From the NCBI GenBank assembly GCA_964023205.1, contig OZ026833.1, positions 47,060,441 to 47,124,440 of the forward strand: a DNA stretch of 64,000 nucleotides. Reading direction: 5' to 3'. Every line of letters begins with the position of its first letter. Within the stretch, counting starts at the first letter, position 1. Source of the DNA: Lutraria lutraria. Its lineage: Eukaryota > Mollusca > Bivalvia > Venerida > Mactridae. Made by a program: the position numbers and the translations under genes. A model generated the notes under the pieces. The model worked only from the letters and a program-made list of their open reading frames with translations, did not search any database and had not been told where the DNA came from. Positions 3,451 to 61,202 of this stretch are shown one piece after another.

Positions 3451-3774
3451 CTCAAAATCTATATTTTTTCTCCGAACAAATACACAGGGCCCAGTTCGAG
3501 AATTATTTTCAATAAAATTCCCATCGTCCTCTGAGTAGAGTTCACACAGTAATAGCCTTCTCTTGTAGTTGATAGACATACAAACGGATCGTACAGCACA
3601 CTCCTTCACACATTGTCGCAAAGATATCTGTACGATATAATTTATGAGCAATTCAGACACTAAGCATTTGTGTTTATATGTAATTGAATAGCGTATGTCC
3701 GTGGATGCCACAAACGAGACAGTATAAAGTAAAACTATAAAAGAAAGCACACGGTGTTCTTTTACCGGCTTCAT
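3451..3774 (-). CDS. Copy D exon 1: signal peptide plus apple/PAN domain
   Basis: This 324-nt exon has the same length as exon 1 of copies A, B and C, which fixes the start at 3774 rather than at the upstream in-frame ATG at 3831. Residues 1 to about 24 form a basic start and a hydrophobic stretch (LSFIVLLYTVSFVAS), a likely secretion signal. The rest keeps the apple-domain framework: HKCLVS, LRQCVKECA, a further Cys, INYKRR, LLCELYS.DDG and TGPCVFVRR. The exon ends at a phase-0 donor (GAG followed by gtaggt). Protein identity to the other copies is much lower than they share among themselves. The remaining exons would lie left of position 1. Confidence 0.8.
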
Positions 3775-5777
3775 AGTCGTCCAAACAAACAGTTCTCCAT
3801 TCGGATTTTCATGTTTCCTGACTGGAAACATCTGAGTCCATTTACCGACGAAGTCTCTCTTAGATACGGCAGCTGTTTCAACGCCTTTTTAATAGTTTTT
3901 AAAAGAGAAACATGATATTCACACCGCATACACATTAATAAAGTATTACGTATATTATCTAAATCGTAATATCATACCAACTTCATTGCTTAAACGTAAT
4001 ATGTAATACAATCATCTATTGATAGGGTTTCTTGTGAATTAATTATGAAGTCTTCTTTGCGATATAATTATCTGTTTTATAGACGCATTTCAACCATGAC
4101 TGCACTTTGTAAACGTACAAATCATGCCAATGGTGAATTTGCTTTGTATTTATTTGTCAGTTTGAAATATGACCCAAGAACTATTACGCAGTAAAGTTAC
4201 GCTATTAATACCACCCGGTGTTCTGACAAAAAATGTTTTTTTACAGCGAGTAAGTCTATAGGTATACAGAGTATTTCATAAAGCTTCCAAATACATGTAT
4301 ACTGTTTTGTTTGTTACATATAACTTTAAGTCTGGTGACCTGAACATTACCGTGTTTAAGTGATGATATTTGTCTGTTACACGCTATGTTTCACATGTTT
4401 AATACAATTTGATATTCAGTCAAATCCCCGAACAAAAGTCACCGTCAGAAGTCATTAATGTGGCCATTGGTTTGGGAATTAACATTAACCTTTATAAAGA
4501 AATTAATGAGAAACTCGATCGGATTCAACGTAAAGTGAAGCTGACGCATTGGCATTTGTTACGTGCCTTGGATGTGCTTCTTTTTTCCCACTCACAGACA
4601 GTCTAATTAAATTTACTTCTTCCTCTGACGTAAAAAATACTTTCTGACACGACTTTTATTACTGAACTAGAATTGTACGGAATTGATACAAAGAGAAGGA
4701 AAATACATGTAATAATGAACCAAAACTGTATGATTAATTTCCATCAAACATTCATCATTTGAGTTAATTATTACTATTTTTTCGTTGATAATTAGGATGT
4801 TTTTACTCTCAGAGAAAACAGCAGGAGGACCAAACACACAAACAAGTTAATCTGTTTAAATCATTGATATTTACAGTCCTACAATCCATGATGTCTAAGA
4901 AAACATATCAATTAATGAGCCACGTGTGCAAAATCGATGTTCTTTACACCTCATGTGTTGAGACACCAAAGTGACAGTGACCGCTGTTTATGGTCACATT
5001 TGCCTCGACAACGAGAAGTCACTATTTCGGCTATTTTGATAGTGATTTCACTGGGGGGACATCGGCACGGCCGTTGTTAGCAGGTGACCACTTCTAGAAC
5101 GCGGTCGTTAGTTCAGGTTCGATTTTACACAAAAATATTTTGTGTTCATTCTGTATTTAAGTGAGATTTATCCACCGAAGGGGCCAGAAAAACCATAACA
5201 AAATATTATTGTACCAAATGGCCAGATGGCTTACTTTCCTTTGTTTGTAAACATTTCAATAATCTTGAAAGCTCTCGTTCAGGTAGATACATGTATCATT
5301 TTATTTCATTTGTTTATGCGAACAATAAATAATACGTAAACTACCACACTAGGATCAACAAACACATAACAAATACAATAGGACAGCACAAGAAAGCGAA
5401 AAAGCCGCACGGCTTTCAGTTCAGAAATTCACATCACAATGTTACAAGAGAAAAATGAGGATGTAAAGATTGACATCGTTGGACGTAATAATCATAATTC
5501 TATAGTCGTCATACTTATGTTTAAATTTCATATTCTTTTTGCTTCAATTCGAATCCTAAACGCCATAAACGTCCAGTTCAGATAATGCTACATCATCAGC
5601 TTTTTTCAGTTTCGACATAATGTATTACGCATGGCTGTACCTTGACAAAAATGCATGTTTTTCCAATAACGCCTTTGAGGTAAACATGCTCCAGCTCCAT
5701 TTTGTCCATGGATGCTTTTTCCAATCTTTATACTGATATTTCTGAATCTGTCAGCTGCCATACATAATGGCATAACT
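3775..5777. other. Upstream spacer of copy D
   Basis: AT-rich sequence with no clear gene. A possible short terminal exon at 4419-4606 is listed separately. I see no promoter motif that stands out and no homology to the upstream blocks of copies A and B. Confidence 0.4.
4419..4606 (+). CDS. Possible terminal exon or remnant, unknown protein
   Basis: A plus-strand reading frame of about 62 codons follows a plausible acceptor (gatattcag at about 4411-4419) and ends at a TAA. Its predicted peptide is helical and charged (KEINEKLDRIQRKVKL) with no domain I recognise. No partner exon was found nearby. It may be a chance frame or a fragment of an old insertion. Confidence 0.2.
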
Positions 5778-15237: not shown

Positions 15238-15434
15238 TTAATTGCCATACACTTCCAGTTCACAGATTGTTAGCGGTGCAGTGTCGACGTTTACTATTTT
15301 CATATAACGCCCTCTACAAGGTTGTACCAAAACAAAGGTACACGTTGCACCAATCGGGTCTTTATGGTAAACATGCAAGTTCATATTGTCCATACTGTTA
15401 CCAATTGATATGCTTACATTTCTTAGTCTTTCGG
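15238..15434 (-). CDS. Copy A exon 6: F-type lectin C-terminal part
   Basis: Acceptor after a T-rich tract (tttag at 15435-15439). The frame supplies the Ala-Glu-Arg that completes the sugar motif, then NVSISIG, TCTFVLVQPCRGRYMKI and the closing LTICELEVYGN before TAA at 15238-15240. This matches the last strands of F5/8C-fold lectins. Confidence 0.9.
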
Positions 15435-18400
15435 CTAAAAAAAAAAAACATATTATTTATGATCATATTCTACCAACGTTATTCATTTCTCATTGCTATT
15501 ATTAGAATTCAGTGTAAATATTATGCTCTGGTATCATTTAATTTTGATTGCTAAATGTTTGTACAAACACTAAAATGACATTTGTGTTAGCTAAAAGGCG
15601 ATCTTCGATTCTACTGTTTTTAAGTTTTGTTTAACATTATCTAAAAACAATACGTTCGCACTAGTATAATGTCATATATTATTTGAGAGATATTGCATCG
15701 CAAACAGTAAGCACATGCATACGATAATGAATCAGTAATTAGATATCCAAACTTCAACCAAATATGGACGTAAAGAGTTTTATCCATCCATCCGTGCTCA
15801 AGCTCAAATAGATGTTTTATTCATATGATGAAAATAAATGTGAATACGTAATGATTTGGAAAAAACATTGTTCGCCTACGGTTTAGATATTGATTGTTCA
15901 CGTTCTAGTGTGTTATGACGATATATTATCAATAAAAAAGAAGAAAAAATATATAATAAGTACAGTATGATAAAACAGGGACAAAATTGAAAAAATAATT
16001 CAATTGATTTACCACAACAGTCCCTTCTGTTTACAATATATAATGCATGTAGTGTATAGCTTTGCCCAAGATCCAACGTCGCATAGTCCGGTAAGCTTCC
16101 AGCTGTATGCGCGCAGTTTGGATTATTTGGATTCCGGCCTCCGTCAACCTAGAATCAGACATGTTCAAAGTTTCATGTTGAAATCAGTACCAGTTTTCGA
16201 AATTATAGATAAATATTAAGCTTATAAAGTCCATGGTTACACAAAAAGAAACATTTCTAATATATATAATATATATACACATGTATATGTAAAATAATAA
16301 AATTAAGTCGGAATCCTCTGATTAATGTTTTAATCCATCAATCAGAGACATTCCGTATGTTTTTCATTGATTTTCACGTTAATTCCTGCATTGCTCCAAA
16401 AATTTTGTATATTATGTTATGCAATTTACATAACTGCAATATTGAATCCTCTCCAAATCAGAAAAATACAAGGATGTTATATAAAGACAACGACGCTGCG
16501 AAAGTAAAAATATGTCAGTAATGACTTTTAAGGCAATATGAGACCTTTCCTTGACGTCATATTCTATAAATAGCGATTGCGTTATCAAGCTAACACTAGT
16601 CGATGTGAATATCACGTAAATACGTTTAGATGAGAATTCGCCCTGTAATATTAAGATAATGTTGAAAAGGCACAAAACACACGCATCGATGGTAGATTGT
16701 TGCAAATGCATGTATACATGTACGTCCGTAGAGATGTTTCTGAACCATCGAACGAAAACCGAAAGTAGAACTACTTCTACAGAAACATGATATGCAAAAC
16801 AGCCGCTTAGGCGCGATATTTTACTGGACTGTGGATACGCAGTTTTAATTCTACGCATTTGAATATCTCATGCATTTACCGACAATCACTTATTTAGACA
16901 CATGACTCTTTCCGTGTAGTTACAATAAAATGATTTGAAATATATTTAGATCTGACACACTTAATTGAGGTAGTATGCCAGATACAGCTATATAATCACA
17001 CCATTTAGTTGCATACTATTTTCTTTATGAGGCATTCTTTTAACCAAGCTGTCAAGCGACATTAGCTTGCTCAACGTTACTAAGGACTTGATTTTGATAA
17101 AAATCAAGTCCTAAAATGACCAATTTTCTTTGGAGGAAACCCGCAACCCACCTTCAATCATACGTACTTACCATCAGTGCCCCTGAGTGAAAGACACTAC
17201 TTAATGTCACGTGCTTGTTTAGTGCAACATTTGTGTGTTGTGCGGAGAAATCAGCCACTGGTAACACTGAACACGAAGCTGTAAAAAGGGATCAAAATGG
17301 ATTTTTAGCATTCAGTCGCTACAATAACCCTTGTTGGACAAATGCCTCCAACATAAACATATTTATGTTGCGATATAATCGTTGATGGAATCATATCTTT
17401 ACACTGGACACGTTTTTCTTTATAAATTATATTCAATGTTTATTACTCAAAGTTCATTAAAATGTTTTTCGGTAAATTTCTATTTACAGTTTAATCAACA
17501 TTATTTTACATTACAAACTATGTTGTCTTTGCCATAGAATTATATTATATTGAAAATGGTCAAAGGTAATTTAGTTTTGCTGGTTAGGCCAATAAACTTT
17601 CAAACTTGATGAAAATTATGTCATATGCTGCAAGAACTGGCCCTACAATCGATTTAAAACAAATAAATTGTAAAATCTTGCTCTGCACTCGATAATATAA
17701 ATAAGTTTTAAAAATTAAGGATGCTTTTCGCGAATTTAAGCAAATCTGGAATCATATCAAACTGCTATTTAAAAACACACACAGGTCGCCGATTGTTCAC
17801 GCCAGAATAAGTATATGCCCGTTGTTGTATTCATATCAATAAACTATTATACAAATTAATCGTCTATTGTCTCAGCTTGACCTTCGGAAATTTTCATGAC
17901 TTCTAAACGGTGGTGAGTAGGAGGAAATTTGTCTTAGGTAGATTTTCATTTTCCAACTTTTGCTCGAATGTATTATTGGTTATTATTCAACACAACAGAG
18001 ATAGTGCCAGTTCAATTCATAAATAAATAAAGTGTAACATATTCATTTATTTTAGTCACAATCTATTGATTGTGCAATCGGTTTGTTACTTAATTGTTCG
18101 TGGTTTAACCAGAATTTACAAACAATATATATTCATGACTCCCAAGAGGTCAACAAACATCGGCCTTTCATGGTATGCAATGGTAACCAAGCGCACAGTT
18201 GTATATATCAAACGTTTGCGGCCCTAACAAATGTAGAAACTAAAGTATACTACACGTTAAACTTGTCATACCTGTGATACACCGCGGCACGTAGGACCAT
18301 TCGCCCGTTTGTCCACAGGTTGATCGCGAGCTTGAGCCCTCAGCTTCAACGTAGTTGTTGTTGCATGAAAATCTGACCACAGCACCCAGTGTATGCATGT

Positions 18401-21400
18401 TACCATCAACCACACCATGATCTAATCGTAATTTAGGACACACTGCAATTATGACCATTATATTAATTTTATAACATTGACAATCATATAATGATACATT
18501 TGTAATTATATGTTTTTAGTAAAAAAACCTTTTACAGTTCCTGAATACGAAAAGAGCAAACGAATGCACTGAACTTTGTTTAGAATGATGGGTAAAAAGA
18601 AAGTACGACATCCTTACTATCGAAGGATACATTTATACAAACACCGAAAATGTATTATAGCTTATAATTCATATAATGTCCGACACAATTTTATTCTGAA
18701 GGAAATGCATTTTCGAAAGATAGATATTGTGTTAAGAAATATCTTTAGAATCGTAAAATGGTAAGATGTAAATGATAGAAGTGTACAAATACACAACGCT
18801 TAAAGTGGAATACAATTCGTGAACACACAAAAAACATGGGAGAGGGAGAAAATATATCACTCCTATATAGAAAGTATATCGCGTGCTGTGGCTAAGAAAT
18901 ATGTAATACAGAGGGATGAATCACTACCTGTCTTATTACAGGACGATGATTCAATATCGCATGCTTCCAGTTCACTGCAGGAACACGTGGATGGTGACTG
19001 CAACATAAATATATTCGAATTATGCATAACCACTATCGCCATTGTAAGCAAGCAGATTTCGTTGAATTTGGCACAAAGAATCGATATCGTACTAAACAAT
19101 AGGCGGGTTATTTATAAGAATCGTTGATATAAAGTGGAGCATAAATTGACTTCTCTAATAAAAGAAAAGATATAATCTAAATTATTTTATGATTTTATAT
19201 ATGTGATTTTTCTTTTTGTCCGCAATATCGGTGAGTTTATTTCGGCGTTAATTCCCTTTTATTTGAACCGAATTATCAGATTAAATGACCTCAAGTTATC
19301 AAACTAACAATCAGTGTGAGGATCAATGCTGATTTTATGTTCGACCAAAATTATCTTAAAATAGTGTGCACACATTTTTTAGGCTTAGAATGAATAGATA
19401 TTGTATTTCTAGAAGTAAAGCGACATATTTTTATTGTAAAACATGTATCAACTATAGAAGGTGTAATGAGTAGCTTAAGTTTAGCTTCGAACATTCGTAT
19501 AACAATCAATTTTAATTCAGCTGATATAGAAAGATGGGCTGTAACTGTAAGATACATTATTCTCCGACAGTCAGGAAGCCAGATGGATTGGGAAAATGAA
19601 TTGGGATATCCATTAGGATCCGAAGGGTAAAACTAAATTGTGTCAACAGTCTTGGTAAACTTCTGAATACTTGGATATTCCCAGAACATGAGTGTATTCA
19701 CCTCTTTGATTTCTATGTATTTTCATCCGTCAATCAATAATTTGGCACGACTGTTTACCACGTCAAAAATCAATATACAACAAAATGTAGTATAAGGTAA
19801 AGGTCACATGTAACGGTCTTATGTAACATCTGGTCTTTAACATCAGGTGATCAGTTCATTACTCAGTCAGAAGACAGAGAATATTTTAACAACCTTCACC
19901 TTTATGAGACAGTGTGTTGCACAGAATAATTATTTTTGTAGTTCAAATTGTTCACAATGATGTATTGACCTGTTGCGCGCAGGTCCTGTGTCGGTAGCCC
20001 AAATGCCAAGAACATATAAATTTAGGAGAAATAGATATATATATACACCTGGAAATAAGTTAAGGTATTAGATGTATAATATGAAGTGTTCAGGATTGCA
20101 TTTTAAATATTGTCATTCTTTTGTATATCCATTAAGACACTCAGAGGTGAATTTTTAAAAACTTTCACCATCAGTTAAGAGAGTTACGACCATTTTTAAA
20201 ATCTTATGAAGATTCCTGTATGAAAATTGATCTACCTCTATAACAGATGACACAATAAATGCAAAAATGTGTATAAGTCTAAGGGAAACCAATATTTTGT
20301 CAATCCAAAGAATAAATATGATGTTTGGAACTACTATGTTGCAGAAAAAATGAAATATATAACCCCGCCCCTTTAAGATTTAGTGAAGATGTTTGCTTAT
20401 TACCAAAAAGTAACAAATTGATAAGTATCACTAAGATAAAAACCAAATGGGGCAATGCCTGAAATTTTCTCAAAATTAACTACTGTGTGTGTATAATGTC
20501 TATAGCAAATTTTAAAAAGTTTCACCATCCGGTTTTGAAAAGATGAGTGTCAGAAATTCATGGTTACTTGATTTTCGTTAATTAACGATGTATAAATTCC
20601 TATAATCTAAACAAAATATTTTGGAATATATATTTTCCTTCATATTACTGTATTATTCATGTTCTAAGTACAAAACATTACCTAAAAACTAAAAAAAAGA
20701 AGAAAAAAATTTGGTCCCAGTGGGGTTTGAACCCATGACCCTCAAGGAATTTGTCAATTGTACGTAAAAATGATGAAATTTAGTACTCTTCAAAATGGAG
20801 GTAATGCATTATACATCTAATACCTTAAGCACACCCGGCATTTTGCCTCGAATTTGACATGACCACAACTGAAATTTTAAATTTTATTTGAGCAATGGTA
20901 AGAACGACCTTCCGTACTAATCATGTGTATCTCCGATAGAGTTGCACGCACGGAAAGCTCGCCATTTCGACAGTATATTCGTGAATTGTTAAACTACACT
21001 TTCAATTAACACAAAGTACATGTACAAAATTTGATTTTGTTCTAACATATTGTCATTATTTTGACCTCTTGTCAACCAAATGGTTAGGAGAAGATTATCG
21101 GATGGCGATAGGTGGCAGATAATAGTCATGATTAAAGCTGTTGGTCGTCAGCTTGGCTATAATCACTCTGTCATTAGCAGACTAGCTCAGAAGTATCGGC
21201 AGACGCATGACGTAAGGGACCGTCCAAGATCTGGACGGCCATATGTAAAAACGGCACGCGAGGACCGAAATCTTTTACGACTCGTTAGACGTTTTCCGTT
21301 TGCAATAAGCACCTATCTAAAGCGAAACTGGTTGCCGCACAGGCATTTGTCGTCACGTACTCTGCGCAATCGGCTCAGATCTGCAGGTTTAAAGTCGAGA

Positions 21401-23796
21401 AGGGTAATAAAACGTCCCTTTTTGACACCTGTTTATCGCAGGAACCGTCTGACATGGTGCCTGACAAGGCGTGGTTGGAACCTGAGATCATGGAGAAAGA
21501 TCCATTGGTCAGATGAAAGCAGGTTCCTTCTGCACGTCATAGACGGGCGCATTCGAGTGTGGAGGCAACGAAATACAGCCTACACATCAAGAAACATTCT
21601 TCCTACGGTTCCCTTTGGTGGTGGATCAGTTATGATATGGGGTTGCTTGTCCCATGACTGTAAGTTGGACATTGTAACTGTCCAAGGAAATCTGACAGGT
21701 GATACTTATGTACGAGACATCCTACATCCAGTCGTCGTGGACCATTTTGATAATCATCCATTGGCTTCCCGACCTGTTTACATGGACGATAATGCCAGAT
21801 CGCACCGAGCCCATGCTGTAACACAGTTTTTGCAACGGAATGTCATCACCACCATTCCCTGCCCTGCCATGAGTCCTGATTTAAACCCACTGGAACACGT
21901 GTGGGAGATCCTGGGCCGGAAAATACAGAATTTGGACCCACCTATAGTCAACCTGCAACAACTGGAACAAGCTCTGCACCAAGAATGGCAAAATTTATCT
22001 CAAAATCGCATTAGACGCCTTACTGGTAGTATGAGTGGAATGGTTGAGGCTGTCATCCGGGCACGTGGCGGTTACACACGTTATTAAAAATTTGGCTACA
22101 TAATGTCATTTAAGGTTAAGTAATCGTCAACATTTACCAAAAATATCCACCAGTAAATGTTTTGTAAACGCTCCAACACCATACTTATAAACACCTACAT
22201 TTTTGGTAAAAAAACAACACATTTGCTTATGCTTCAATAATTTGGATAAGAATAAACTAAACTCATAAATGTACTGGTTTATGATTACTAAATTGCTATC
22301 GCTACTTATCAAATTACTATTTCTTAGCTCAATTAAGTCGTCATATCATGACAGTGCTTTCAATCACAACCAATTTCCGGGGTGTGCTTAACTTATTTCC
22401 AGGTGTATATACGAGTATATATATATATTGCGCCAAGCTTTTTTATGGACAAGGATATTGTATGAAACACATGTTTTTACATAAAAAGTCATTATCATAA
22501 CGATACATTTTCTTTATAAACACGAATCACTTGATTCAAGATACGTTAGTGTAATATCTTCAACCATCCGATACAGATCCACATACACACAAAAGTATAC
22601 ACAATAAATTACTAACAAATTCGTTTGTTTTGCACCTTTATAACATAGTATAAGTGTTTTTCTATAAAAGAGTATTACCATACTCAGACAGGAAACATTT
22701 TATGATTCGTTTGATTCGTTTCTTGAGAGTGCTGCATTGAATGTTCTATTCAATAATTAAAATACTTTTAACATACTTTTTGCTTTATTTCTTGTTGATC
22801 AGATTTTTCCGTTCGGAATAATAAAATACATTTCGATTAAAAGAGTGTTGGTAAATATAACCAATGTACACCAACTATAGTATTTTATATTTACAATTTC
22901 ATGCACTTTGTGACGTTCTTTTTCATTTCGACTAAGACATTTCTGAAACTTTATATAGTATATTTTTCGGATGCCTCGCTCACGTTTGGTCTTAAATCTT
23001 CAGAGAAATATCTGGCAATCTGGACTAAGCAACAAACTTTTCAAAGTTTGCTATCAAATAATGAAACCAATCCAAAGTACATTTGAAACCCCTGAAAATC
23101 GGCCTTAGCCAAAAGTCCGGTTTTCTTAAAATTCAGGTTTTCGAAAAATTTGGACCTACAGGTTTTCTTGAGTTTTACTGTACTTGTCCGTCAAAGAATA
23201 TTCTGATAGCAGGACCGAACAAAGTCACTCCAACTAAACTCTTAGCTTTTATGGTCTTGGTGAAAATCTACTAAATACTCAAGGTTCAATTAATAGATAA
23301 CTGGGATCTTTTGAAGAAGACATTCAGTCCAACAATATGTTTTATTGTTAAGAAAAAGGAAATTAAAAATGATTTTGTGATCATCATGTAAGTGAGGATT
23401 TAAAGATAGATACGTACTTCATCTTTCAAATCAATGGGAACAAGCTCTGTGTACATTATAAAAGTTACATACCCCAGGAGAAAAAGATATTTTCCGTACA
23501 AAAACGCATGGTCCTGTTCCTTTAACATTGTCGACAAAAGTACCATCGTCTACAGAATACAATTCACAAAGTAACTGCTTTCTCTTGTAGCTGATTGACT
23601 GACAACTTTGAAGGACGGCACATTCTCGCACACATTGCTTCACCGACATATTCACAAAATACATGATAATCATGTCGGACACTAAACACTTGTTGTGATG
23701 CGTAATTTCATATTTAAGATCATATGAAACCAATGCAATAGCGACATCGAGTATTAGGATGAAAGAAATAATATTCAGCAATTTCATTGACACCAT
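15238..23796 (-). CDS. Copy A: secreted apple-CCP-F-type lectin gene (six exons)
   Basis: The exons are 23796-23473, 18997-18928, 18442-18272, 17278-17172, 16148-16013 and 15434-15238. All have GT/AG borders and compatible phases (0,1,1,0,1), giving 335 codons including stop. Domain order is signal peptide (about 1-24), apple/PAN (about 25-102), four-Cys module (about 109-131), CCP (about 133-188) and F-type lectin (about 190-334). The fucose site is intact, with His238, Arg265, Asp267, the Cys268-Cys269 pair and Arg272. A secreted lectin that binds fucosylated glycans is expected. Intron 1 holds the Tc1 element. Introns 2-5 (485, 993, 1023 and 578 bp) contain only sequence shared with copies B and C. 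Transcription is not shown by sequence alone. Confidence 0.88.
16013..16148 (-). CDS. Copy A exon 5: F-type lectin sugar-binding part
   Basis: 136 nt, phase 0 in and phase 1 out. Encodes VDGGRNPNN, CAHT, LDLGQSYTL and YIVNRRDCC. It supplies His, Arg and Asp of the fucose motif and the adjacent Cys pair. Borders are ctag before GTTGAC and GTAAAT after the last G. Confidence 0.92.
17172..17278 (-). CDS. Copy A exon 4: F-type lectin N-terminal part
   Basis: 107 nt, phase 1 in and phase 0 out. Encodes SCSVLPVADFS then TNVALNKHVTLSS and ends GALM at a gtaagt donor. It is 6 nt shorter than in copies B and C, removing two residues in the loop before GALM. Confidence 0.88.
18272..18442 (-). CDS. Copy A exon 3: CCP/sushi domain
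   Basis: 171 nt in symmetric phase 1-1, the classic exon-shuffling class for CCP modules. The four CCP cysteines and the Trp are present (CPKLRLDHG, VRFSCNNNY, a third Cys before GQTGEW, and PRC). It is one codon longer than in copies B and C. Confidence 0.92.
18928..18997 (-). CDS. Copy A exon 2: short four-cysteine module
   Basis: 70 nt, phase 0 in and phase 1 out. Encodes a CSC pair followed by CSELEACDIESSSC and an NKT glycosylation sequon. Acceptor ttgcag, donor gtagtg. The length and borders are identical in three gene copies, which supports it as a real exon. No known domain is recognised. Confidence 0.85.
20064..20824. mobile_element. 761-bp TTAA-flanked element nested in Tc1
   Basis: The inverted ends GGTATTAGATGTATAAT (20064-20080) and their complement (20808-20824) are each bounded by TTAA. 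Removing the element and one TTAA restores the Tc1 end sequence aagttaagcacac, which matches the complement of the right Tc1 end. This proves the insertion. It is non-coding. An antisense B-box-like ggtttgaaccc lies near 20724. The TTAA target suggests the piggyBac or Kolobok type, but a TA target with ends AGG...CCT cannot be excluded. Confidence 0.85.
21080..22087 (+). CDS. Tc1/mariner transposase, DD34E
   Basis: A complete 335-codon ORF, the usual Tc1 length. An N-terminal helix-turn-helix (about 15-60, with the NHSVISRLAQKY helix and DRPRSGRP linker) binds the inverted repeats. The DDE domain has the first Asp in WSDESRF, the second in MDDNARSHRA, and Glu after exactly 34 residues in SPDLNPLEHVWE. 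The glycine-rich GGGSVMIWG is present. No stop or frameshift is visible, so the protein may still be active. The interrupted left end of the element would not prevent protein function. Confidence 0.95.
   Translation: MVRRRLSDGDRWQIIVMIKAVGRQLGYNHSVISRLAQKYRQTHDVRDRPRSGRPYVKTAREDRNLLRLVRRFPFAISTYLKRNWLPHRHLSSRTLRNRLRSAGLKSRRVIKRPFLTPVYRRNRLTWCLTRRGWNLRSWRKIHWSDESRFLLHVIDGRIRVWRQRNTAYTSRNILPTVPFGGGSVMIWGCLSHDCKLDIVTVQGNLTGDTYVRDILHPVVVDHFDNHPLASRPVYMDDNARSHRAHAVTQFLQRNVITTIPCPAMSPDLNPLEHVWEILGRKIQNLDPPIVNLQQLEQALHQEWQNLSQNRIRRLTGSMSGMVEAVIRARGGYTRY
23473..23796 (-). CDS. Copy A exon 1: signal peptide plus apple/PAN domain
   Basis: 324 nt ending at a phase-0 donor (GGG then gtatgt). Residues 1-22 are a signal peptide (MKLLNIISFILILDVAIAL). 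Apple-domain cysteines occur in NKCLVS, KQCVRECA, QSCQSISY, LLCELYS and GPCVFVRK. The start is conserved with copies B and C, each with a second in-frame Met three codons on. Confidence 0.92.
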
Positions 23797-30434: not shown

Positions 30435-30570
30435 CACAACAGTCCTTTCTGTTTACAATATATAAGGCATATAGGGTATAGCTCTGTCCAAGATCCAACA
30501 CCGCGTTGTGAGGTAAGCTTCTATTTGTATGCGCGCAACTTTGATAGTTTGGATTCCGGTCTCCGTCAAC
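30435..30570 (-). CDS. Copy B exon 5: F-type lectin sugar-binding part
   Basis: 136 nt with the same borders as in copy A (ctag acceptor, gtaagt donor). Encodes VDGDRNPNYQSCAHT and YIVNRKDCC, keeping His, Arg, Asp and the Cys pair. Confidence 0.9.
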
Positions 30571-36631: not shown

Positions 36632-36799
36632 CTGGGATACACCGCGGCATGTAGGACCATTCGCCCGTATGTGCACAGTTTGAATGCGTTCTGCCTTGAG
36701 CTTCAACGTAGTTATCGTTGCATGAAAATCTAACCGAAGCACCCAGTGTACGCATGTTCCCATCCACCACACCATGATCTAAGCGTAATTTAGGACACA
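36632..36799 (-). CDS. Copy B exon 3: CCP/sushi domain
   Basis: 168 nt, phase 1-1. Cys residues and Trp conserved (CPKLRLDHG, VRFSCNDNY, NCAHTGEW, PRC). Acceptor tacag, donor gtataa. Confidence 0.9.
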
Positions 36800-37279: not shown

Positions 37280-37349
37280 CTGTCTTATTACAGGACGATG
37301 ATTCAATATCGCAAGCTTCCAGTTCACTACAGGAACATGTAGATGGTAA
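37280..37349 (-). CDS. Copy B exon 2: short four-cysteine module
   Basis: 70 nt, frame TCSCSELEACDIESSSCNKT preceded by LPS. Only the first codon changes relative to copy A. Acceptor ttgcag, donor gtaggt. Confidence 0.85.
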
Positions 37350-42190: not shown

Positions 42191-42514
42191 CTGAGGAGTA
42201 ATAGATGTTTTCCGTATAAAAACGCATGGTCCTGTTCCTTTACCATTGTCGACAAAAGTTCCATCGTCTACTGAGTAGAGTTCACAAAGTAACTGCTTTC
42301 TCTTGTAGCTGACGGACTGACAACTTTGAAGTAATGCGCATTCTCTTACTCATTGCTTCACCGATATGTTCACAAAATACATGATAATCATGTCGGACAC
42401 TAAACACCTGTTGCGATGCGTAATTTCATATTTCAGATTATATGAAACCACTGCCATAGCGACATCGAGCATTAGGATGCAAGAAATAATATTCAGCAAT
42501 TTCATTGACACCAT
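42191..42514 (-). pseudogene. Copy B exon 1: apple/PAN exon with in-frame TGA
   Basis: 324 nt with intact start, signal peptide (MKLLNIISCILMLDVAMAV) and donor. The codon corresponding to Cys in KQCVREC is TGA (42350-42352). No other lesion is present. The change is one base from TGT. Confidence 0.88.
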
Positions 42515-47425: not shown

Positions 47426-47466
47426 TCACATATCGCCATACACTTGTAGTTCACATATCGTTAAAT
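47376..47466. repeat. Local inverted and direct duplication at copy C stop codon
   Basis: An inverted copy of the exon end (gatatgtgaactagaagtgt at about 47387) faces a direct copy (cacttctagttcacatatcg), and a further copy lies at 47442-47460. The duplication moved the stop so that copy C ends YGDM. Confidence 0.75.
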
Positions 47467-47625
47467 ACTCATTGTCAGTGTTTGTTATCATCATATAACG
47501 CCCTCTACAAGGTTGTACCAAAACAAAGGTACACGTTGCACCAATCGGGTCTTTATGATAAACATGCAAGTCCATGTTGTCCATACTGTCACCAATTGAT
47601 ATGCTTACATTGCTGAGTCTTTCGG
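47426..47625 (-). CDS. Copy C exon 6: F-type lectin C-terminal part
   Basis: 200 nt, acceptor tttcag. Encodes ERLSNVSISIGDSMDN, TCTFVLVQPCRGRYMMI and ends LTICELQVYGDM with TGA at 47426-47428. Three nt longer than in A and B. Confidence 0.88.
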
Positions 47626-50600
47626 CTGAAAAGACAACAATATGTTATTCATGATCATATTCTACCAATGTAATTCATTTCCCATTGCTAGCATTTCATT
47701 TTAATGTAAATATTATGCTCTGGTATCATTTAATTTGTATTGCTTAAAGGTTTGTACAAACGCTAAAATGACATTTGTGTTAGCTAAAACGCGACCATAA
47801 TTCTCCTATATTCAAGTTTTGTTTAAAATGATATAAAAACCTAACGTTATTTAAGAGATATTGCATCACCAACAGTAGGCAAATGCATGTGATAATGAAA
47901 AAGTAATTCAATATCCCAACTGCAAACAGATATTGACGTAAAGAGTTTATATATCCATCCGTGCTCCAGCTCAAACTCATATTTTATTCATATGATGAAA
48001 TGTGAATTCGTATTGACTTGGAACAAACTTTGTTCGCCTACAGGTTTCGTACAGAAATTAACAATCATGATTTTTCACGTTCTACTGTGTCATGACGTTA
48101 TATTGTCAATAAAAACAGTATAAAAAATATAAACTTTTTTCTGCATAATGCGTACAGTATGATAACACAGGGATAACGCTGAAAAAACAAATTCAATTGA
48201 TTTACCACAACAGTCCTTTCTGTTAACAATATATAATGCATATAGTGTATAGCTCCGCCCTAGATCCAACATCGCGTGGCTGTTTAACATTTCACTTGTA
48301 TGCGCGCAGTATGGATTATTTGGATCCTGATTTCCGTCAACCTGTATAGAATAAGCCATGTCCAAAGCTTTATGTTGAAATCAGTACATTTTACCAGTGT
48401 TCAGAAGATTAAACTTTAAATCTATGGTTACACATTAAGAAACATTTATAATATTATTGGAATAATTAGAAATAAATTTTTATTTATTTCTAGAAATACC
48501 GGTTTAATTGAAACGTCATATCAGACGTTAATGACGTCATTTAATTTCAATTCCCTTAGAAACCTCTTTCTCTCTAACCTCATAGCAACTTCATGAGTGA
48601 TGATAAAAAAAGAATTGATATAGATTCTATATGAATATGCAAAAAAGTAAGAAATGTAAAATTTGACCCTTCAGTTTGGAAATCGAATTTTACGATTTAA
48701 TTTTGCTGTGTAACAACATGTTGAATAAATACTTAATTTCGTTCCCGCCATGCTTTGTAATTACGTGTACTTGACGTGTATGATTTAAGTTGACAGGTCA
48801 ATCGGATACAGCATTTAAGTCTTTTAATGAAAATTCGAAAATAAACACAATGTTTAAGCATAAACTCGAGTATGAACATTAATATGGAAACTTCATGTAA
48901 CATTATACATATTTCATTATGGCGCACATTCTGTGATTTCTATTGTAAAATCTAATTAAAAGAAAACTATGGTGACTGATTTACGCCAAGTCGTATTTTC
49001 ACTTTTGTAATACGAAAACACGACGGTGACTTTGTCGTGTCTTCATTTTTTCGCAGTTTGGCATTGCCATGGCGAGAAAGGGGAATACGACAAAAGTAAG
49101 GCGACAGTGCGTCATAGAAATGTGTCGTGTTTTTTAATTACATTTGTCATATCTTTGCTTTTTTGTGGGGAAAATTCGAAGACACAACAAAGTCAACTTT
49201 GTCGTTCCTTCATGTTTTTGGCATTGTTGTATTGTCACATTTTCGCATTGTTGCATTTTCGCATTATTGCATTTTTGCATTTTCGCATGTTTGCGTTCCG
49301 GTAGTCCAAACGCATTCGCACACCAATTATACATACGCATAAACAAAAATGAATTGCGATAGTATCAATTCTCACAGTTCCTATTGTTATCTACTGTATT
49401 ATGTGGACATCTTATACTTTTTTTAATTGTATTAGATAAAAGGTATATCTAAAACTTCTAAGTCTTCTCTTCTTGTGCTTACGTAACGGAAACGCGAAGA
49501 TGACGACAATGCGACAAAGCAACAATGTTTAAATGCAACAATGCAAAAAAGCGAACTCACAAAGTCGACTTTCCCGGATTTTCGCCACGAAAAAGCAAAA
49601 AACACGACGTATGTGAGGCGAAAACACGACACATTTTTTGTGTCGTATTGTCGCCCTTCTTTTGTCGTTCGTTCGCTGTTTCGCCAAGACAATACTCCAA
49701 TGCGAAAACACGACAAAGTCAGCGTCCTTCGAGTTTTGTTTTCGGAGTTTCGCATCATCGTAGCAAATAAGGGAACATACGACAATGGCGTAAATTAGCC
49801 TAATAGAAATCAGGTGCAAAATAAGTATATAATTGAAATCACATGTGTTTGCAAATGGAAGTTACCATCAGTGCCCCAGTGTAGTTGTTGAGGACGGAAC
49901 TTAATGTTACTGTCTTGTTTCGTGCAACATTTGCGTATTTTCCGGAAAATTCTGTCACTGGTAACGCTGAACATGAAGCTGTAAAACAGGGTTTAAACGG
50001 TACCTTTAACATACAGTCGCTGAAACAAAACTTGCTTGACAAATTCCTTCAACATACACATATATATGTAGTGACATTACGATGGAACAATATCTTTACA
50101 CTGGACATTATATCTATACTGATCACATTTTCTTTAGAAATGATTAGTCTTTTCAGTATATTTCTAGTTATTGTTTAATCTTTAACTTAACTTTATTATA
50201 CATGCATTTGAATATGTATGTCTTTGTCACAAAATGATGATATATTGTGAATGGCGGCCAAAAGCAATTTATTATTGCTGGTTATGCAAATAATGCTGAA
50301 AATAATGTATCAAACGTCTTTTTTCGCGAGTTTAATGCATGTTTTACCTTCTGATCATGCTAAAATTTCTATGCAACTTGATAGAAAATGACGACACTTG
50401 AGTACATCCCTAATTAAATAATTGTCTGAACTGCACGACTAACAGCTCACACTAACAGCAAAAATTAAGTTTGCTTAAAGATGAGTTTTTAAATGTTTTT
50501 TATTTAGTAAGGTACACTTGCATCTGAAAAGTATATTACAGGCTTGACTAGAGCATCAGTGTTACGCGTACATTTTGTATAAAACATAACATGTGTAAAT

Positions 50601-53600
50601 ACTTTAAATACATTACATGTGTAAATTTTCAATTACTTTATTATCATGACCTAATTTGGTACAACACAAACTAGAGTCAGATACACGTTTTGTGCTATTG
50701 TTTTGAATATGCAAATTAATCGCCTATAACCATGCTTGACCAGCAAATTGTTCTTATGACTCCCAGATGATGGTAAGGGGGAGGATAAATTTGCTAGGTA
50801 GATTTTGCTATGGAGATTTATTTCCAACATTTGTACGTATGTACTATTGAGTATTATTCAAAATTACAGAGACAGAGCCGTTTCAATTCATGACTAAATA
50901 TTCATCACATACGTATTTGTTATATATTTTGGGAACTGAATCAAGATCATCATCAGTGTGAGTGTCATAAGTGTGTAGTAAGTTATAGTATAACTTTATA
51001 TAGTATCTTAACTATAGTAGTACAATAGTAATACATCATCCAGGAACAATAATCCTTTTCTAAAATATCACTTTTACTTCAATTAACCTCTACTAGTTAT
51101 CTTCACAAATTTCACATACACGTAACTAGCCCCGCACGAGATTTTTTACCGCCACTCACCAGTCAGTATTAATATTCGTTAGATGCGGACGCTTTTGTAG
51201 GTTTTGCTTCAAAACCTGCAGGTAAACTAAATTCAATATAATTACTGTAATTTCTCTGTTTCATCTTTAATTGTTTCATCATTTGAAAAGCTTTAAATGT
51301 ATAATTGATATAAATAATATAATAATTCGTTTGGTGACTTTATTTTGGTTAAATTATTGTTTGTATACTTGTTTGATATTGTTCATAGCAATTGCCACAC
51401 TGTATTGTTTAATTATGTTTTATATATAATTGTGTATTTGAATGATGGCAGATTTTGTATAGACCGTATACTTACACCGTAAAAACTCGTTGTTGTAATT
51501 TACCCACCATGCCGACTCAGAGCACCGATGACGCGTAGGTGTATTTTGGTTACAATCTGTTGATTGGGCTATCGGTTTATGAGTTACTCCTAGTTTATAC
51601 AAGCTTTACCTACAATATATGTTCATACATCCAAAGTGACCAACACGAAACGCCTTTTGAAGGTTTGCAATGGTAACCAAGAGCATCAAACGTTTTCAAG
51701 CCTACCAAATGTAGAAAGTAATGTATACTACACGTTAAACTTGTTATACCTGTGACACACCGCGGCACGTAGGACCATTCGCCCATTTGTCCACATGCTG
51801 ATTGCGTTCTGCCTTGAACTTCAACGTAGTTGTTGTTGCATGAAAACCTAACCACAACACCCAGTGTACGCATGTTTCCATCAACCATACCATTATCTAT
51901 TTGAATTTTTGGGCACACTGTAATGATGACCATTGTATTGAATTTATAAGTGTTACCAATTTACCATTGAAAAGCCTATGATGATACATGTTTCAATAGT
52001 CAACGAATACGAAAAGCGCAAATGAATGCACTGTAATGTTTAGAATGATTTGGTAAAAAGAACATGGCATCTTCATTACCACCAAAATACATTTACACAT
52101 ACAACTAATGAGTATCACAGCTCACACATCTAATAACGATCAGGTTAACTCTATTAAGGAAACATACCTTGAAAATAATATATTTTGTTAAGAACTATGT
52201 TTAGACTTGTAAAACGGTGATACACAAACAGAAGTAAATTACTGAATAACATTTCTGAACAAATACACAAAGCTAAAATTGGTATACAATGTTAAACACG
52301 TGAAGAAAGAGAGAAAATATATCACTTCTATATGGGAATTATGTTGTTTGAGCATACGGTTAAAGTTCACAAAATGGTTGACAGGTAATCGTTACTTTGG
52401 TTTCAATATACTGCGTACTGAGGGTAAGAAATATGTAATAGAAAATGAAGAATACCTACATTTCTTACTACAGGACGATGATTCAATATCGCAAGCTTCC
52501 AGTTCACTGCAGGAACATGTGGATGGTGACTGCAACATAAGTATACTCGAATTATATACGAGGGCTGACTTTTGGATCATTCTCGAAAACTATTCAACAT
52601 TTTTCAAAAAATCTTTCTATTCTTTTTTCTGAATATTCTCCACCTACGTCTGGGCACTTTTGCCATCGTCATGGGAGCTTTTGTATTCCCGATTTGAATC
52701 ATGACGTAGACCTTTGTTCTAGGTACTGTGTAACGGCAGACATCAAAGCCACCCTGGTCTTAAATTTCTTTCCAGCAAGCATTCTTTTCAGTTCTTGAAA
52801 CAAATAAAAGTCACATGGTCAAGGTCTGGGCTACAGGGAGGGCGAGACAACAATTTCCATTTGTAAGAGTTGATAACCTCCACTGTAGCTGCGGCGGTAT
52901 GGGAGGGTGCGTTATCGCGAAGAATGAGGGCTTATTCAGTAGTTATCTTGGACGGATATGTTTCAGGTTTTCTCTGAGATTTTTCAGAATTACTTTAGAA
53001 TAGTTTTTGGCGTCGACAGTTTGATCTTTTGGCATGAAATCAGCAAGTATAATTCTTAGTGAATCCCTAAAGGCAACAATCATCACTTTGCCAGCCGAGG
53101 GAGACAGCTTAAATATTTTAGGAGGTGGATAACCAGCTCGTTCCCACTGCTTTAACTGAGCGTTTGTGTCAGGTTCGGCATAATGAACCCACATTTCATC
53201 TTCATTGATAATGCAGTTCAAAAACCTATCTCCTTCACGATTAAACGACGTTCTTTTGCATTGGTTACTCTGGTTGCCTTTTGATCTGCAGGAAGCTGTT
53301 TAGGCACCCACCAGGTCCTAGCACTTATAATGCTCATGTCTAGGTGTTCGTGTAAATTATTGTGTGCCGATGCATTACCGATTCTGAACTTGTTGGCTAC
53401 CTCCTCCAAAGTTACTCGACGATCTTTGTTGACCAAAGCTTTAGCAATTGCTACCATTGTTGGGTATCCACATATGCTGGCCGCCAAGACCTACGTCTGT
53501 CGCAAACACAAGTTCTGCCATCACGAAACTGAGAAACCTAGTGTTGATACACATTTATCAGAAAATCTTTTTAAGCCTTTGAAAATTGTGGCAGGACTAT

Positions 53601-59600: not shown

Positions 59601-61202
59601 CTTGTAAACTTTTAATGTAAAAGAGCTTGTGATCATTACGTTTCAGTGATAAAAATTGAATGATTACTTTTCTGATATGTCTTATTAAATTTCATATTTC
59701 TCTAATTTAGAACGGTAAATCTTTACAAATTTTATGTATTTAGTACTATAATTATTGCTGTTAAATAATATGTTAATAAATAGTGTATACCTATGATACT
59801 TTTTAAGATATCAAGATTTGAAGCCTGTCAGAGGCATAAAAAATGGCGAAATTTTGAATGTTCGCAGTGACTGTAACAATGCATTTAATAATTTTTTCTC
59901 TTGTGTAACAACTTTTTATTTCACAAATAGTATTCTGTCTAATTATGTTGACCAAATGTAACAAGTAGATGCAAATTTCATATTGAAAGTTAAATAATTG
60001 ACAAAAATATATAGATTTTTGTGAAACAGGTGTTTGTCTTATTTTTAATGAATCCGACGCTTGAGGGTCATGACCTTAAAACTCTCATAAAATTTTTATT
60101 TGACGGTAAAAGTTTGAAATATTTTGCAGTTAAACCAGGCAACCATCACAGATAACAAATACAATTTAAAAAATGACTTTCTGAAACATTGATGTTATGG
60201 GTATAAAACCTTAAATCTTCAGAGAAACATCAGGTAATCTGGACTGAGCAACAAAGCTTTTAAACATTGTTATCAAATAATGACATCAATCCAAAGTACA
60301 TCTTTAACACCCGGTCTTCAGATATAAAGTCCGAAAAGAATGGAATTACCGGTGTTCAATGATAAAATCCGAAAAGAATGGGGCTTACCGGTGTTCAGTG
60401 GTTTTGATGAACTTGGCCTTAAACGAATATTCTGATTTTGGAGCAAGACCTAACTGAAGACATTCTAACGAAACTTTTAACTATATTTATTGTTCTTGGT
60501 GATAATCTACTTAATACTAGAGGTTCAATTTATAGGCGACTGATATATCTAAAAAAAAGACATTCAGTCAAACAATTGTTAAGAATAAGAAATTTAAAAA
60601 TGATACTATGATCTAGTATAAATATATCCCTAAAAGGGGATCACAATATCGTATGCAGCAGAACCAGTCTAAACTCAAATTTTCAACCTGGCGGTCTTTT
60701 TCAAGAGCTATGATCAAAGCAACATATCTCTTGAAAAAGACCGCCAGGTTGAAAATTTGAGTTTAGAGTGGTTCTGCTGCATACGATATTGTGATCGTTC
60801 TGTAAATGGTAAGATTCGTACTTTAATTTTCAAACCAACAGAAGCAATGTACATATGTACATTAAAAAAGTAACATACCTGAGGAGTAATAGATGTTTTC
60901 CGTACAAAAACGCATGGCCCGGTTCCTTTACCGTTGTCGACAAAGGTACCATCGTCAACTGAATATAATTCACAAAGTAATTGCTTTCTCTTGTAGCTGA
61001 TGGACTGACAACTTTGAAGGACGGCACATTCTCGCACACATTGCTTCACAGGTATATTCACAAAATACATGATAATCATGTCGGACACTAAACACTTGTT
61101 GCGATGCGTAATTTCATATTTCAGATCATATGAAACCACTGCAATAGCGACATCGAGTATTAAGATGCAAGATATAATATTCAGTAATTTCATTGTCACC
61201 AT
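47426..61202 (-). CDS. Copy C: secreted apple-CCP-F-type lectin gene (six exons)
   Basis: The exons are 61202-60879, 52529-52460, 51917-51750, 49978-49866, 48341-48206 and 47625-47426, with phases as in copy A, giving 337 codons with stop. Domain order is signal peptide, apple/PAN, four-Cys module, CCP, F-type lectin. The motif is intact: His239, Arg266, Asp268, Cys269-Cys270, Arg273. Differences from A and B include loss of the NKT sequon at the end of exon 2, which has T instead of G before the donor, and a slightly longer C-terminus. Intron 1 (8.3 kb) holds a mariner and a 5.7-kb TTAA element. Intron 4 holds a foldback element. Introns 2, 3 and 5 are plain. The mariner near the exon 2 acceptor may weaken splicing. 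Confidence 0.83.
48206..48341 (-). CDS. Copy C exon 5: F-type lectin sugar-binding part
   Basis: 136 nt. Encodes VDGNQDPNNPYCAHT, MLDLGRSYTL and YIVNRKDCC. The acceptor is tacag instead of ctag; the donor gtaaat is as in copy A. Confidence 0.9.
48971..49802. mobile_element. Inverted-repeat element rich in CGACA and CGCATTTT motifs
   Basis: The ends (ggtgactgatttacgcca at 48971 and the complement of tggcgtaaattagcctaa at 49785-49802) are imperfect inverted repeats. The flanking intron matches copy B without this block. The inside is a low-complexity patchwork of aacacgacaaagtc, its complement, and alternating gcattttcgcattgttg units. Short ORFs on both strands are artefacts of these repeats. 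Non-autonomous; superfamily unknown. Confidence 0.72.
49866..49978 (-). CDS. Copy C exon 4: F-type lectin N-terminal part
   Basis: 113 nt. Encodes SCSALPVTEFS, ANVARNKTVTLSS and ends YTGALM. Donor gtaact, acceptor tacag. Contains NKT and NYT sequons. Confidence 0.88.
51750..51917 (-). CDS. Copy C exon 3: CCP/sushi domain
   Basis: 168 nt, phase 1-1. CPKIQIDNG, VRFSCNNNY, SACGQMGEWSYVPRC, with all four Cys and Trp kept. Acceptor tacag, donor gtataa. Confidence 0.9.
52460..52529 (-). CDS. Copy C exon 2: short four-cysteine module
   Basis: 70 nt. The frame keeps TCSCSELEACDIESSSC but then reads SKK instead of NKT. The last exon base is T, a weaker donor context (T before gtaggt). A mariner insertion begins 28-30 bp upstream of the acceptor. 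Confidence 0.75.
52559..53839 (-). mobile_element. Mariner-type transposon, decayed, in copy C intron 1
   Basis: The ends cgagggctgac and the complement of gaccgtccctcg form an imperfect inverted repeat flanked by TA on both sides. Copy A shows the empty site (attatgcataaccac). The transposase is on the minus strand in broken frames. Length is about 1.28 kb, normal for mariner. Confidence 0.9.
52600..53720 (-). pseudogene. Mariner transposase, frameshifted relic
   Basis: Pieces in order: N-terminal MDSLLEEQHSVIIFMVAEGE (about 53655), VNKDRRVTLEEVANKF and HNNLHEHLDMSIISARTWW (53487-53218), then INEDEMWVHYAEPDT with the first catalytic Asp and FKLSPSAGKVMIVAF (53221-52943). A shifted frame gives RDNAPSHTA with the second Asp and PPCSPDL (about 52840-52920), then an eroded C-terminus with stops. 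No working protein is possible. Confidence 0.88.
55735..55845. repeat. Hairpin inside the TTAA element
   Basis: Arms of about 45 nt (55735-55779 and 55801-55845) pair almost fully, with start tatattagtgttcatcctg and matching end. The GC-rich loop is about 20 nt (gacgggagcgtagcgaccg). Confidence 0.85.
56786..56902. repeat. Imperfect tandem duplication
   Basis: Two units share cgatactatg...cgtagta...atttttggcgttctacgaaattaag, spaced about 75 bp apart. Confidence 0.65.
60639..60796. repeat. Long near-perfect hairpin next to exon 1 of copy C
   Basis: Arms 60639-60707 and 60728-60796 (69 nt each) are inverted copies with only one or two differences, separated by a 20-nt loop. Begins gatcacaatatcgtatgcag. 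It lies 83 bp downstream of the exon 1 donor, inside the transcribed intron. Confidence 0.92.
60879..61202 (-). CDS. Copy C exon 1: signal peptide plus apple/PAN domain
   Basis: 324 nt. Signal peptide MKLLNIISCILILDVAIAV. Apple-domain Cys pattern complete (NKCLVS, KQCVRECA, QSCQSISY, LLCELYS, GPCVFVRK). Ends TPQ at a phase-0 gtatgt donor. Confidence 0.92.

What the first reader, a model, noticed from the sequence alone, without database searches (positions are those of the whole stretch)
3451..61202. Tandem array of four apple-CCP-F-type lectin genes
Three full six-exon genes and the first exon of a fourth share exon lengths, phases and intron blocks on one strand. F-type lectins with CCP modules are known in animals (established family knowledge). 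An architecture of signal peptide, apple/PAN, four-Cys module, CCP and a C-terminal F-lectin, repeated in tandem, is to my knowledge unusual and suits a diversifying immune or recognition locus. The role is inferred.
Basis: partly seen in the sequence, partly recalled or inferred. Interest (0 to 1): 0.9.

Follow-up and report, generated by a model that had tools for sequence, protein, structure and literature searches.

The report
Tandem clam genes for fucose lectins
This DNA, likely from a clam, holds a row of duplicated six-exon gene models (two open, one with a stop codon, one cut off by the window edge) for likely secreted proteins predicted to bind fucose sugars; the copies differ most in the loops predicted to surround the sugar, so the family would suit recognition of microbes or other cells.

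Summary
The array is real. On the minus strand three six-exon models (A 61202-47426, B 42514-29265, C 23796-15238) share phases (0,1,1,0,1), GT-AG borders and homologous intron blocks. Pfam finds PAN and F5/8-type C above cut-off in A and C, and Sushi in C (in A and B when exon 3 is scanned alone). Copy C matches striped-bass FBP32 (E 1.4e-27) and eel agglutinin; all three F-lectin domains keep HX26RXDX4R. Corrections: B has an in-frame TGA at a conserved apple cysteine, so two copies are open, not three; the fourth gene also has exon 2 (1382-1319, two cysteines instead of four); a frame-broken F-lectin last exon (5754-5556) is a fifth unit. The domain order is not unique: one Mactra antiquata protein has it and a second has its C-terminal part. 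Differences among A, B and C cluster in loops around the predicted sugar pocket (18 of 22 columns against 19 of 109; loops chosen after seeing the alignment). dN/dS stays below 1 for every whole domain, so positive selection is not shown. Most likely: germline-diversified secreted lectins. An immune role is inferred; expression and binding are untested.

The parts
60879..61202 (-). gene A exon 1: signal peptide (by inspection) + apple/PAN domain
   Evidence: PAN_1 1.2e-04
52460..52529 (-). gene A exon 2: four-cysteine module
51750..51917 (-). gene A exon 3: CCP/sushi
   Evidence: Sushi 1e-06, exon scanned alone
49866..49978 (-). gene A exon 4: F-lectin, first part with CDR1 loop
48206..48341 (-). 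gene A exon 5: F-lectin, cation site, fucose His and first Arg
47426..47625 (-). gene A exon 6: F-lectin end and stop codon
42191..42514 (-). gene B exon 1: signal peptide + apple domain, interrupted by an in-frame TGA
42350..42352 (-). in-frame TGA in gene B exon 1 at the second conserved apple cysteine
   Evidence: TGT in A, C and D
37280..37349 (-). gene B exon 2: four-cysteine module
36632..36799 (-). gene B exon 3: CCP/sushi
   Evidence: Sushi 2.7e-09
31476..31588 (-). gene B exon 4: F-lectin part 1
30435..30570 (-). gene B exon 5: F-lectin part 2
29265..29461 (-). gene B exon 6: F-lectin part 3 and stop codon
   Evidence: F5_F8_type_C_2 8e-13 on joined exons 2-6
23473..23796 (-). gene C exon 1: signal peptide + apple domain
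   Evidence: PAN_1 3.1e-06
18928..18997 (-). gene C exon 2: four-cysteine module
18272..18442 (-). gene C exon 3: CCP/sushi
   Evidence: Sushi 8.8e-09
17172..17278 (-). gene C exon 4: F-lectin part 1, CDR1 two residues shorter
16013..16148 (-). gene C exon 5: F-lectin part 2
15238..15434 (-). gene C exon 6: F-lectin part 3 and stop codon
   Evidence: F5_F8_type_C_2 3e-11
5556..5754 (-). relic F-lectin last exon with frame breaks (fifth unit)
   Evidence: profile E 6.2e-10 for the middle piece
3451..3774 (-). gene D exon 1: signal peptide + apple domain, about half identical to A-C
   Evidence: (PAN_1 4e-06, joined with exon 2)
1319..1382 (-). gene D exon 2: two-cysteine version of the linker module
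   Evidence: E 7.5e-04

Best explanation
The locus is a tandem array, likely in a clam, of genes for likely secreted modular F-type lectins: an N-terminal apple domain, a small cysteine module, one CCP and a C-terminal F-lectin domain predicted to bind fucose-bearing glycans. Shown: two open copies (A, C), a third with an in-frame stop (B), an edge-cut more divergent copy (D) and a relic exon, all on one strand, with homologous introns among A, B and C. Inferred: the F-lectin head would grip terminal L-fucose or a similar 6-deoxy sugar through His-Arg-Arg; the apple, cysteine and CCP stem would hold subunits together (21 cysteines, an odd number, in the mature A and C chains, so one is likely free for an inter-chain bond) and contact other proteins, giving a multivalent soluble agglutinin or opsonin. 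Unequal duplication followed by change in the pocket loops over a conserved stem would give a small germline repertoire of related specificities, with turnover seen as B's stop and the relic exon. An immune role is the likeliest use.
For: Exon lengths, phases and GT-AG borders agree in three copies; intron and flank homology. PAN, Sushi and F5/8C above the curated cut-offs (Sushi of A only with exon 3 alone). F-lectin membership: FBP32 3cqo E 1.4e-27, eel agglutinin 1k12 E 1e-11 with copy C, and aligned His52, Arg79, Asp81, Cys82-Cys83, Arg86, Asp64, Arg131, Cys50 and Cys146 in A, B and C; motif HX26RXDX4R in all three. No strongly hydrophobic stretch after the N-terminal one in A and C, hence likely secreted. 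Same order in Mactra antiquata P0002; P0003 has CCP, F-lectin and the end of the apple domain. Differences concentrated around the pocket: 18 of 22 loop columns vary against 19 of 109 others; with only CDR1 and CDR2, 12 of 15 against 25 of 116; a 40-column scan peaks on this region, 81 of 10000 shuffles as high. Exon 1 dN/dS 0.13-0.41 against CCP 0.60-0.80. Bivalve F-type lectins are reported as defence molecules in PMC5712786 (passages read).
Against: No expression, binding or challenge data. dN/dS is below 1 for every whole domain. In the pocket loops the synonymous rate is raised as well (pS 0.51 against 0.24 elsewhere), which fits relaxed constraint or mutational effects. The apple/lectin contrast is absent in the B-C comparison (apple 0.41, F-lectin 0.31; Fisher p 1.0, against A-B 0.0017 and A-C 0.038, not independent). 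B cannot make a full protein as sequenced. No consensus kappa-B site in the window. Both structure models were too weak to use (mean pLDDT 51.4 and 33.7). The aromatic pocket residues Phe45/Tyr46 of eel agglutinin are Asn/Pro in A and C, so the ligand may not be plain fucose. The review credits mollusc F-lectin diversity at least in part to gamete recognition (PMC5712786 passage).
Confidence: 0.6

Rival explanations
1. Gamete recognition: the array encodes sperm or egg-coat F-lectins, working like oyster bindin, and loop change reflects sperm-egg coevolution.
For: Oyster bindins are F-type lectins with variation around the fucose pocket and an intron inside each F-lectin domain (PMC5712786, passages), and the review links mollusc F-lectin diversity in part to this use; here too the pocket loops vary most and introns cut the domain.
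Against: Bindins have 1-5 F-lectin repeats in one chain; here there is one per gene plus apple and CCP. No omega above 1 for any whole domain. No expression data.
Confidence: 0.15
2. Feeding, mucus or shell-matrix lectin: the proteins sort food particles on gill mucus or sit in mantle or shell.
For: [quoted passage not shown] PMC5712786 (passages) mentions F-type lectins in shell matrix and mantle of Mya truncata.
Against: Nothing in this window speaks for it specifically; for Mya the review itself suggests an immune function of the shell and mantle lectins.
Confidence: 0.2
3. Decaying duplicates with little function: relaxed constraint explains the variable loops.
For: Stop codon in B, relic exon near 5.7 kb, raised synonymous as well as non-synonymous change in the loops.
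Against: A (1,011 bases) and C (1,005 bases) are open with intact splice sites; overall dN/dS 0.35-0.45; the fucose triad, the cation-site Asp38 and the Cys50-Cys146 pair are kept in all three; the architecture is shared with Mactra.
Confidence: 0.1
4. The TGA in gene B is decoded as selenocysteine in place of the apple cysteine.
For: The stop falls exactly on a Cys codon; 6 of 49 single-base routes to a stop in this exon (copy C taken as model) are Cys to TGA.
Against: No SECIS family match up to E 5 in 23900-29500, the stretch that holds the end of gene B and what follows it; A, C and D have TGT.
Confidence: 0.01

Closest known systems
Mactra antiquata hypothetical proteins ACF0H5_010676 (P0002) and ACF0H5_010685 (P0003)
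   Same: P0002: signal-like start (by inspection), PAN, cysteine module, Sushi, F5/8C in the same order, 47% identical over 81% of C; P0003: end of the apple domain, four-Cys module, CCP, F-lectin, 50% over 85%. Both list a longest contig of 45,786,304 bases, most simply the same contig.
   Different: P0002 reads as two copies run together and has a two-cysteine linker; P0003 lacks most of the apple domain (no PAN hit) and has Trp at the second fucose Arg. A, B and C are closer to each other (76-80%) than to the Mactra copies (48-55%) over the part from the end of exon 1 on.
Fish F-type lectins: striped bass FBP32 (3cqo) and eel agglutinin AAA (1k12)
   Same: F-lectin domain, His-Arg-Arg triad, vicinal cysteines, Cys50-Cys146 and Asp64-Arg131.
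   Different: No apple or CCP aligned in these chains; AAA Phe45/Tyr46, the Trp-Trp before the 'RVDL' strand and Cys108-Cys124 are not conserved here.
Oyster sperm bindin (Crassostrea gigas)
   Same: Bivalve F-lectin with introns inside the domain and variation near the pocket (PMC5712786 passages).
   Different: One to five F-lectin repeats per chain; no apple or CCP is mentioned in the passages read; [quoted passage not shown]
Drosophila furrowed / CG9095 and sea urchin SpCRL
   Same: F-lectin domain joined to CCP modules (PMC5712786 passages).
   Different: C-type lectin domain and predicted transmembrane segment in the fly proteins, factor I-MAC domain in SpCRL; no apple domain is mentioned in the passages read.

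Membership tests
F-type lectin | significant sequence similarity to proven F-type lectins | tested here: met
   FBP32 E 1.4e-27, AAA E 1e-11 with copy C
F-type lectin | fucose-binding motif HX26RXDX4(R/K), the spacing of AAA | tested here: met
   regex match in A 239, B 239, C 238. PMC5297725 gives X26, PMC5712786 prints X24; AAA has 26 by my count
F-type lectin | cation motif h2DGx | tested here: inconclusive
   A MVDGN and B MVDGD fit in the last position, C MVDGG does not; Met stands at one h position
F-type lectin | binding of L-fucose | not testable with these tools
   needs protein
CCP/sushi module | Pfam Sushi above cut-off, four cysteines | tested here: met
   A 29.5, B 37.7 (exon 3 alone), C 36.1 bits against 20.7; for whole A the match was not listed
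Apple/PAN domain | Pfam PAN_1 above cut-off, six cysteines | tested here: met
   A 22.3, C 27.4, D 27.0 bits against 21.4; six Cys in A, C and D; B loses one to TGA. B's apple was not scanned with Pfam
Oyster bindin | chain made of one to five F-lectin domains, without apple or CCP (as far as the passages read tell) | tested here: not met
   one F-lectin domain per gene, with apple and CCP
Oyster bindin | sperm acrosome location | not testable with these tools
   no expression data
furrowed/CG9095-type CCP-F-lectin | C-type lectin domain and transmembrane segment | tested here: not met
   no such Pfam hit; highest 19-residue hydropathy after residue 40 about 1.05 in A and C

The most novel reading that the evidence does not exclude
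A clam-lineage family of apple-CCP-F-lectin proteins forms a germline-diversified recognition repertoire: a fixed cysteine-rich stem carries fucose-type lectin heads whose pocket loops are changed copy by copy through tandem duplication and gene loss, a lectin counterpart of other expanded invertebrate recognition families.
Probability: 0.35. Interest if true: 0.6.

Novelty: new variant of a known kind. Interest (0 to 1): 0.42.

Why it matters
Bivalves are known for large, expanded lectin-like families (C1q, much of it tandem: PMC8905726 passages; C-type lectins: title of PMC10140915; FReDs: PMC8878817 passage). A family that joins an F-lectin head to an apple-CCP stem, with change concentrated at the predicted sugar pocket, gives a compact, directly testable case of how a fixed scaffold and duplicated heads could widen sugar recognition. 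If the role is immune, it adds a little-described domain combination to the molluscan recognition toolkit; if gametic, it would be a counterpart to oyster bindin.

Tried and rejected
AlphaFold models of the apple exon (A3, 4 rows) and of Mactra P0003 (A4, 2 rows) came back at mean pLDDT 51.4 and 33.7; I ran no fold search with them, since the tool says a weak model gives meaningless matches. Protein searches beyond Mactra: a profile search (the same 2 hits of 3294 candidates) and an F-lectin-core search (1 hit, the query itself, of 11 candidates) found nothing more. No fish F-lectin appeared in any of the three, so these searches cannot measure how widespread the architecture is. Selenocysteine reading of B's TGA: no SECIS match downstream. 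Consensus kappa-B sites: 0 in the window, 1.47 expected by chance. Positive selection: not shown; no whole domain has omega above 1 (the single-exon extreme is 0.93, exon 5, A-C); pooled pN/pS in the three pocket loops is 0.80 against 0.31 elsewhere, and 1.15 in the seven-residue loop after the fucose His, too short to rely on. The pocket loops were chosen after I had seen the alignment, and CDR bounds are mine (the review names residues, not bounds); the scan does not depend on that choice of columns, though its window length of 40 was also set by me. Whether D is closer to Mactra P0002 than to A-C is open (50 of 84 against at most 47 of 84 identical; D closer to Mactra in 667 of 1000 resamples, 82 ties). 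Own-genome search did not complete. Literature: ten search requests, one of them turned back for a slash in a term; in the titles and abstract starts listed by the nine answered no apple-CCP-F-lectin protein is named. The lists are capped (20 of 331 papers, 15 of 32, 15 of 706) and only openly licensed papers are held. I read passages, not whole texts, of six papers: PMC5712786, PMC5297725, PMC3269628, PMC8878817, PMC8905726 and PMC4752248. In PMC3269628 the apple domain is listed among domains found with rhamnose-binding lectins, not F-lectins. Bishnoi 2015, the survey of F-lectin architectures, was seen only as cited, so a published mention of this combination cannot be excluded.
Full report
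What was checked. I re-read the minus strand exon by exon, fixed the borders and joined the products. Three models have six exons each: A 61202-60879, 52529-52460, 51917-51750, 49978-49866, 48341-48206, 47625-47426; B 42514-42191, 37349-37280, 36799-36632, 31588-31476, 30570-30435, 29461-29265; C 23796-23473, 18997-18928, 18442-18272, 17278-17172, 16148-16013, 15434-15238. Exit phases are 0,1,1,0,1 in all three and all 15 acceptors and 15 donors of the internal borders are AG and GT. Introns and flanks align between copies in many blocks. First exons are spaced 18,688, 18,718 and 20,022 bases.

Gene B carries TGA at codon 55, the second conserved apple cysteine, where A, C and D have TGT. As sequenced it is an interrupted copy; allele, sequencing error and true loss cannot be told apart here. 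Gene D has a second exon inside the window, 1382-1319, with the expected acceptor, donor and phases but two cysteines instead of four (profile E 7.5e-04); no CCP exon was found in the remaining bases, although in A-C the next intron is only 480-542 bases. Between C and D lies a frame-broken F-lectin last exon at 5754-5556, about 25 bases from the (CAAGG)n tail at 5780-5812 of a LINE-like element whose reverse transcriptase (RVT_1) is at 7872-6514. So the array counts two open copies, one interrupted copy, one partial copy and one relic.

Domains. Pfam: A has PAN_1 22.3 bits (cut-off 21.4) and F5_F8_type_C_2 39.7 (27.8); C has PAN_1 27.4, Sushi 36.1 (20.7) and F5_F8_type_C_2 44.2; D exons 1+2 have PAN_1 27.0. 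Sushi was not listed for whole A but A's exon 3 alone scores 29.5 and B's 37.7; B exons 2-6 score Sushi 33.8 and F5_F8_type_C_2 49.3. Against solved structures, copy C matches FBP32 of striped bass (3cqo, E 1.4e-27), eel agglutinin (1k12, 1e-11) and, through its CCP, complement factor H and CD55. The motif HX26RXDX4R is in all three copies. Aligned to eel agglutinin, A, B and C keep Asp38, His52, Arg79, Asp81, Cys82, Cys83, Arg86, Asp64, Arg131, Cys50, Cys146 and Glu147; they do not keep Cys108 and Cys124, and Phe45/Tyr46 are Asn/Pro in A and C and Tyr/Gln in B. The salt bridge Arg41-Glu149 is Arg-Glu in B and C and Gln-Gln in A. The only strongly hydrophobic stretch is at the N-terminus (A and C), so the products are likely secreted; the signal peptide is my reading by inspection. 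Mature A and C have 21 cysteines if cut after residue 24; an odd number leaves room for an inter-chain bond, which is inference.

Relatives. One protein search found two proteins of 744 candidates: Mactra antiquata ACF0H5_010676 (P0002, E 1.6e-116) and ACF0H5_010685 (P0003, 7.4e-77), both with a longest contig of 45,786,304 bases, most simply the same contig. Mactra is a bivalve of the order Venerida. P0002 has PAN, Sushi and F5/8C; P0003 has Sushi and F5/8C and only the end of the apple domain, without a PAN hit. P0002 runs co-linear through the exon 1-5 joins of my models apart from a nine-residue gap in exon 2, which supports them; it reads as two copies run together, by annotation or by real fusion. 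Two-cysteine and four-cysteine linkers occur in both animals (D and P0002; A-C and P0003). A, B and C are 76-80% identical to each other and 48-55% to the Mactra copies over the shared part from the end of exon 1 on. The simplest reading, an inference from an unrooted tree, is that A-C expanded after the split from these Mactra copies, while D stands apart (51-56% to A-C in the apple domain). Two further searches added nothing, but one search had only 11 candidates, so they say nothing about how rare the architecture is in animals. The species of the window was not identified; a clam is likely from the nearest relative.

Divergence. dS between copies is 0.25-0.30 over the whole coding part; dN/dS is 0.35-0.45 overall, 0.13-0.41 in exon 1, 0.60-0.80 in CCP and 0.31-0.57 in the F-lectin exons. 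The contrast of exon 1 against CCP plus F-lectin is seen in A-B (Fisher p 0.0017) and A-C (0.038), not in B-C (1.0); counts were rounded and pairs are not independent. Inside the F-lectin domain 18 of 22 columns of three loops around the predicted pocket vary among A, B and C, against 19 of 109 others. I chose the loops after seeing the alignment; with only the two loops named in the review (bounds mine) it is 12 of 15 against 25 of 116, and a 40-column scan peaks at this place with 81 of 10000 shuffles as high. Synonymous change is raised there too (pS 0.51 against 0.24; pN/pS 0.80 against 0.31), so relaxed constraint remains possible and positive selection is not shown.

How it most likely works. 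Shown: duplicated genes, domain order, kept sugar-site residues, variable loops. Inferred: secretion, fucose-type binding by the C-terminal head, multimer formation through the stem, and use as soluble recognition proteins. Reported functions of F-type lectins in the review PMC5712786 (passages read) include pathogen recognition and opsonisation in fish, defence in oysters, and sperm-egg binding in oyster bindin; the review credits mollusc F-lectin diversity at least in part to the last. I give recognition of microbes the best odds, gamete recognition and feeding, mucus or shell roles the rest.

Comparison with what is known. F-lectin plus CCP is known from fly and sea urchin proteins (PMC5712786), the review says that a 2015 survey found both occurrence and domain organisation of F-lectins expanded in molluscs, and tandem expansion is reported for bivalve recognition genes (C1q in the title of PMC6835236, listed, and in Mercenaria, PMC8905726 passages, which also names a Mercenaria-specific orthogroup of 14 Sushi genes). 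Nine answered literature searches listed no title or abstract start that names apple, CCP and F-lectin in one protein; the lists are capped and only openly licensed papers are held. I therefore rate it a new variant of a known kind: known modules in a little-described order, shared with another clam, in a small tandem array.

Noticed in passing
21065-22087 (+) and 38890-38262: A Tc1-like transposase ORF of 340 aa without stops (HTH_Tnp_Tc3_2, DDE_3) lies in intron 1 of C; pieces of the same element, 95-97% identical, lie in intron 1 of B.
   Followed up: partly
7872-6514 (-) and 41014-39548 (-): Two related LINE-like reverse transcriptases (RVT_1; pieces 29-54% identical). The first ends in a (CAAGG)6.6 tail at 5780-5812 beside the relic F-lectin exon.
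   Followed up: partly
33298-34801 (+): Pieces of a retroelement with DUF5641, probably BEL/Pao-like by recall, in intron 3 of B.
   Followed up: no
58744-59073 (+): ORF with a PML C-terminal domain (PF25244, 4e-13) in intron 1 of A; host or transposon origin unknown.
   Followed up: no
53490-52700 (-): Broken mariner-like transposase pieces (by inspection; the first piece had no Pfam hit) in intron 1 of A.
   Followed up: no
61520-61279, 42814-42587, 24081-23851: About 230-240 bases upstream of the first exons of A, B and C are conserved: A-C 76%, B-C 69%. Candidate promoter or 5' UTR.
   Followed up: no
47357-47460: The end of A's last exon is repeated: a 25-base direct repeat (47410-47460) and an inverted copy of 'LTICELEVYGN' on the + strand at 47375-47407.
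   Followed up: no
12667-13105: Tandem repeat of a 151-base unit, 2.8 copies.
   Followed up: no
28966-28321 and 2990-2198: A dispersed repeat, 81-93% identical, after gene B and within intron 1 of gene D.
   Followed up: no
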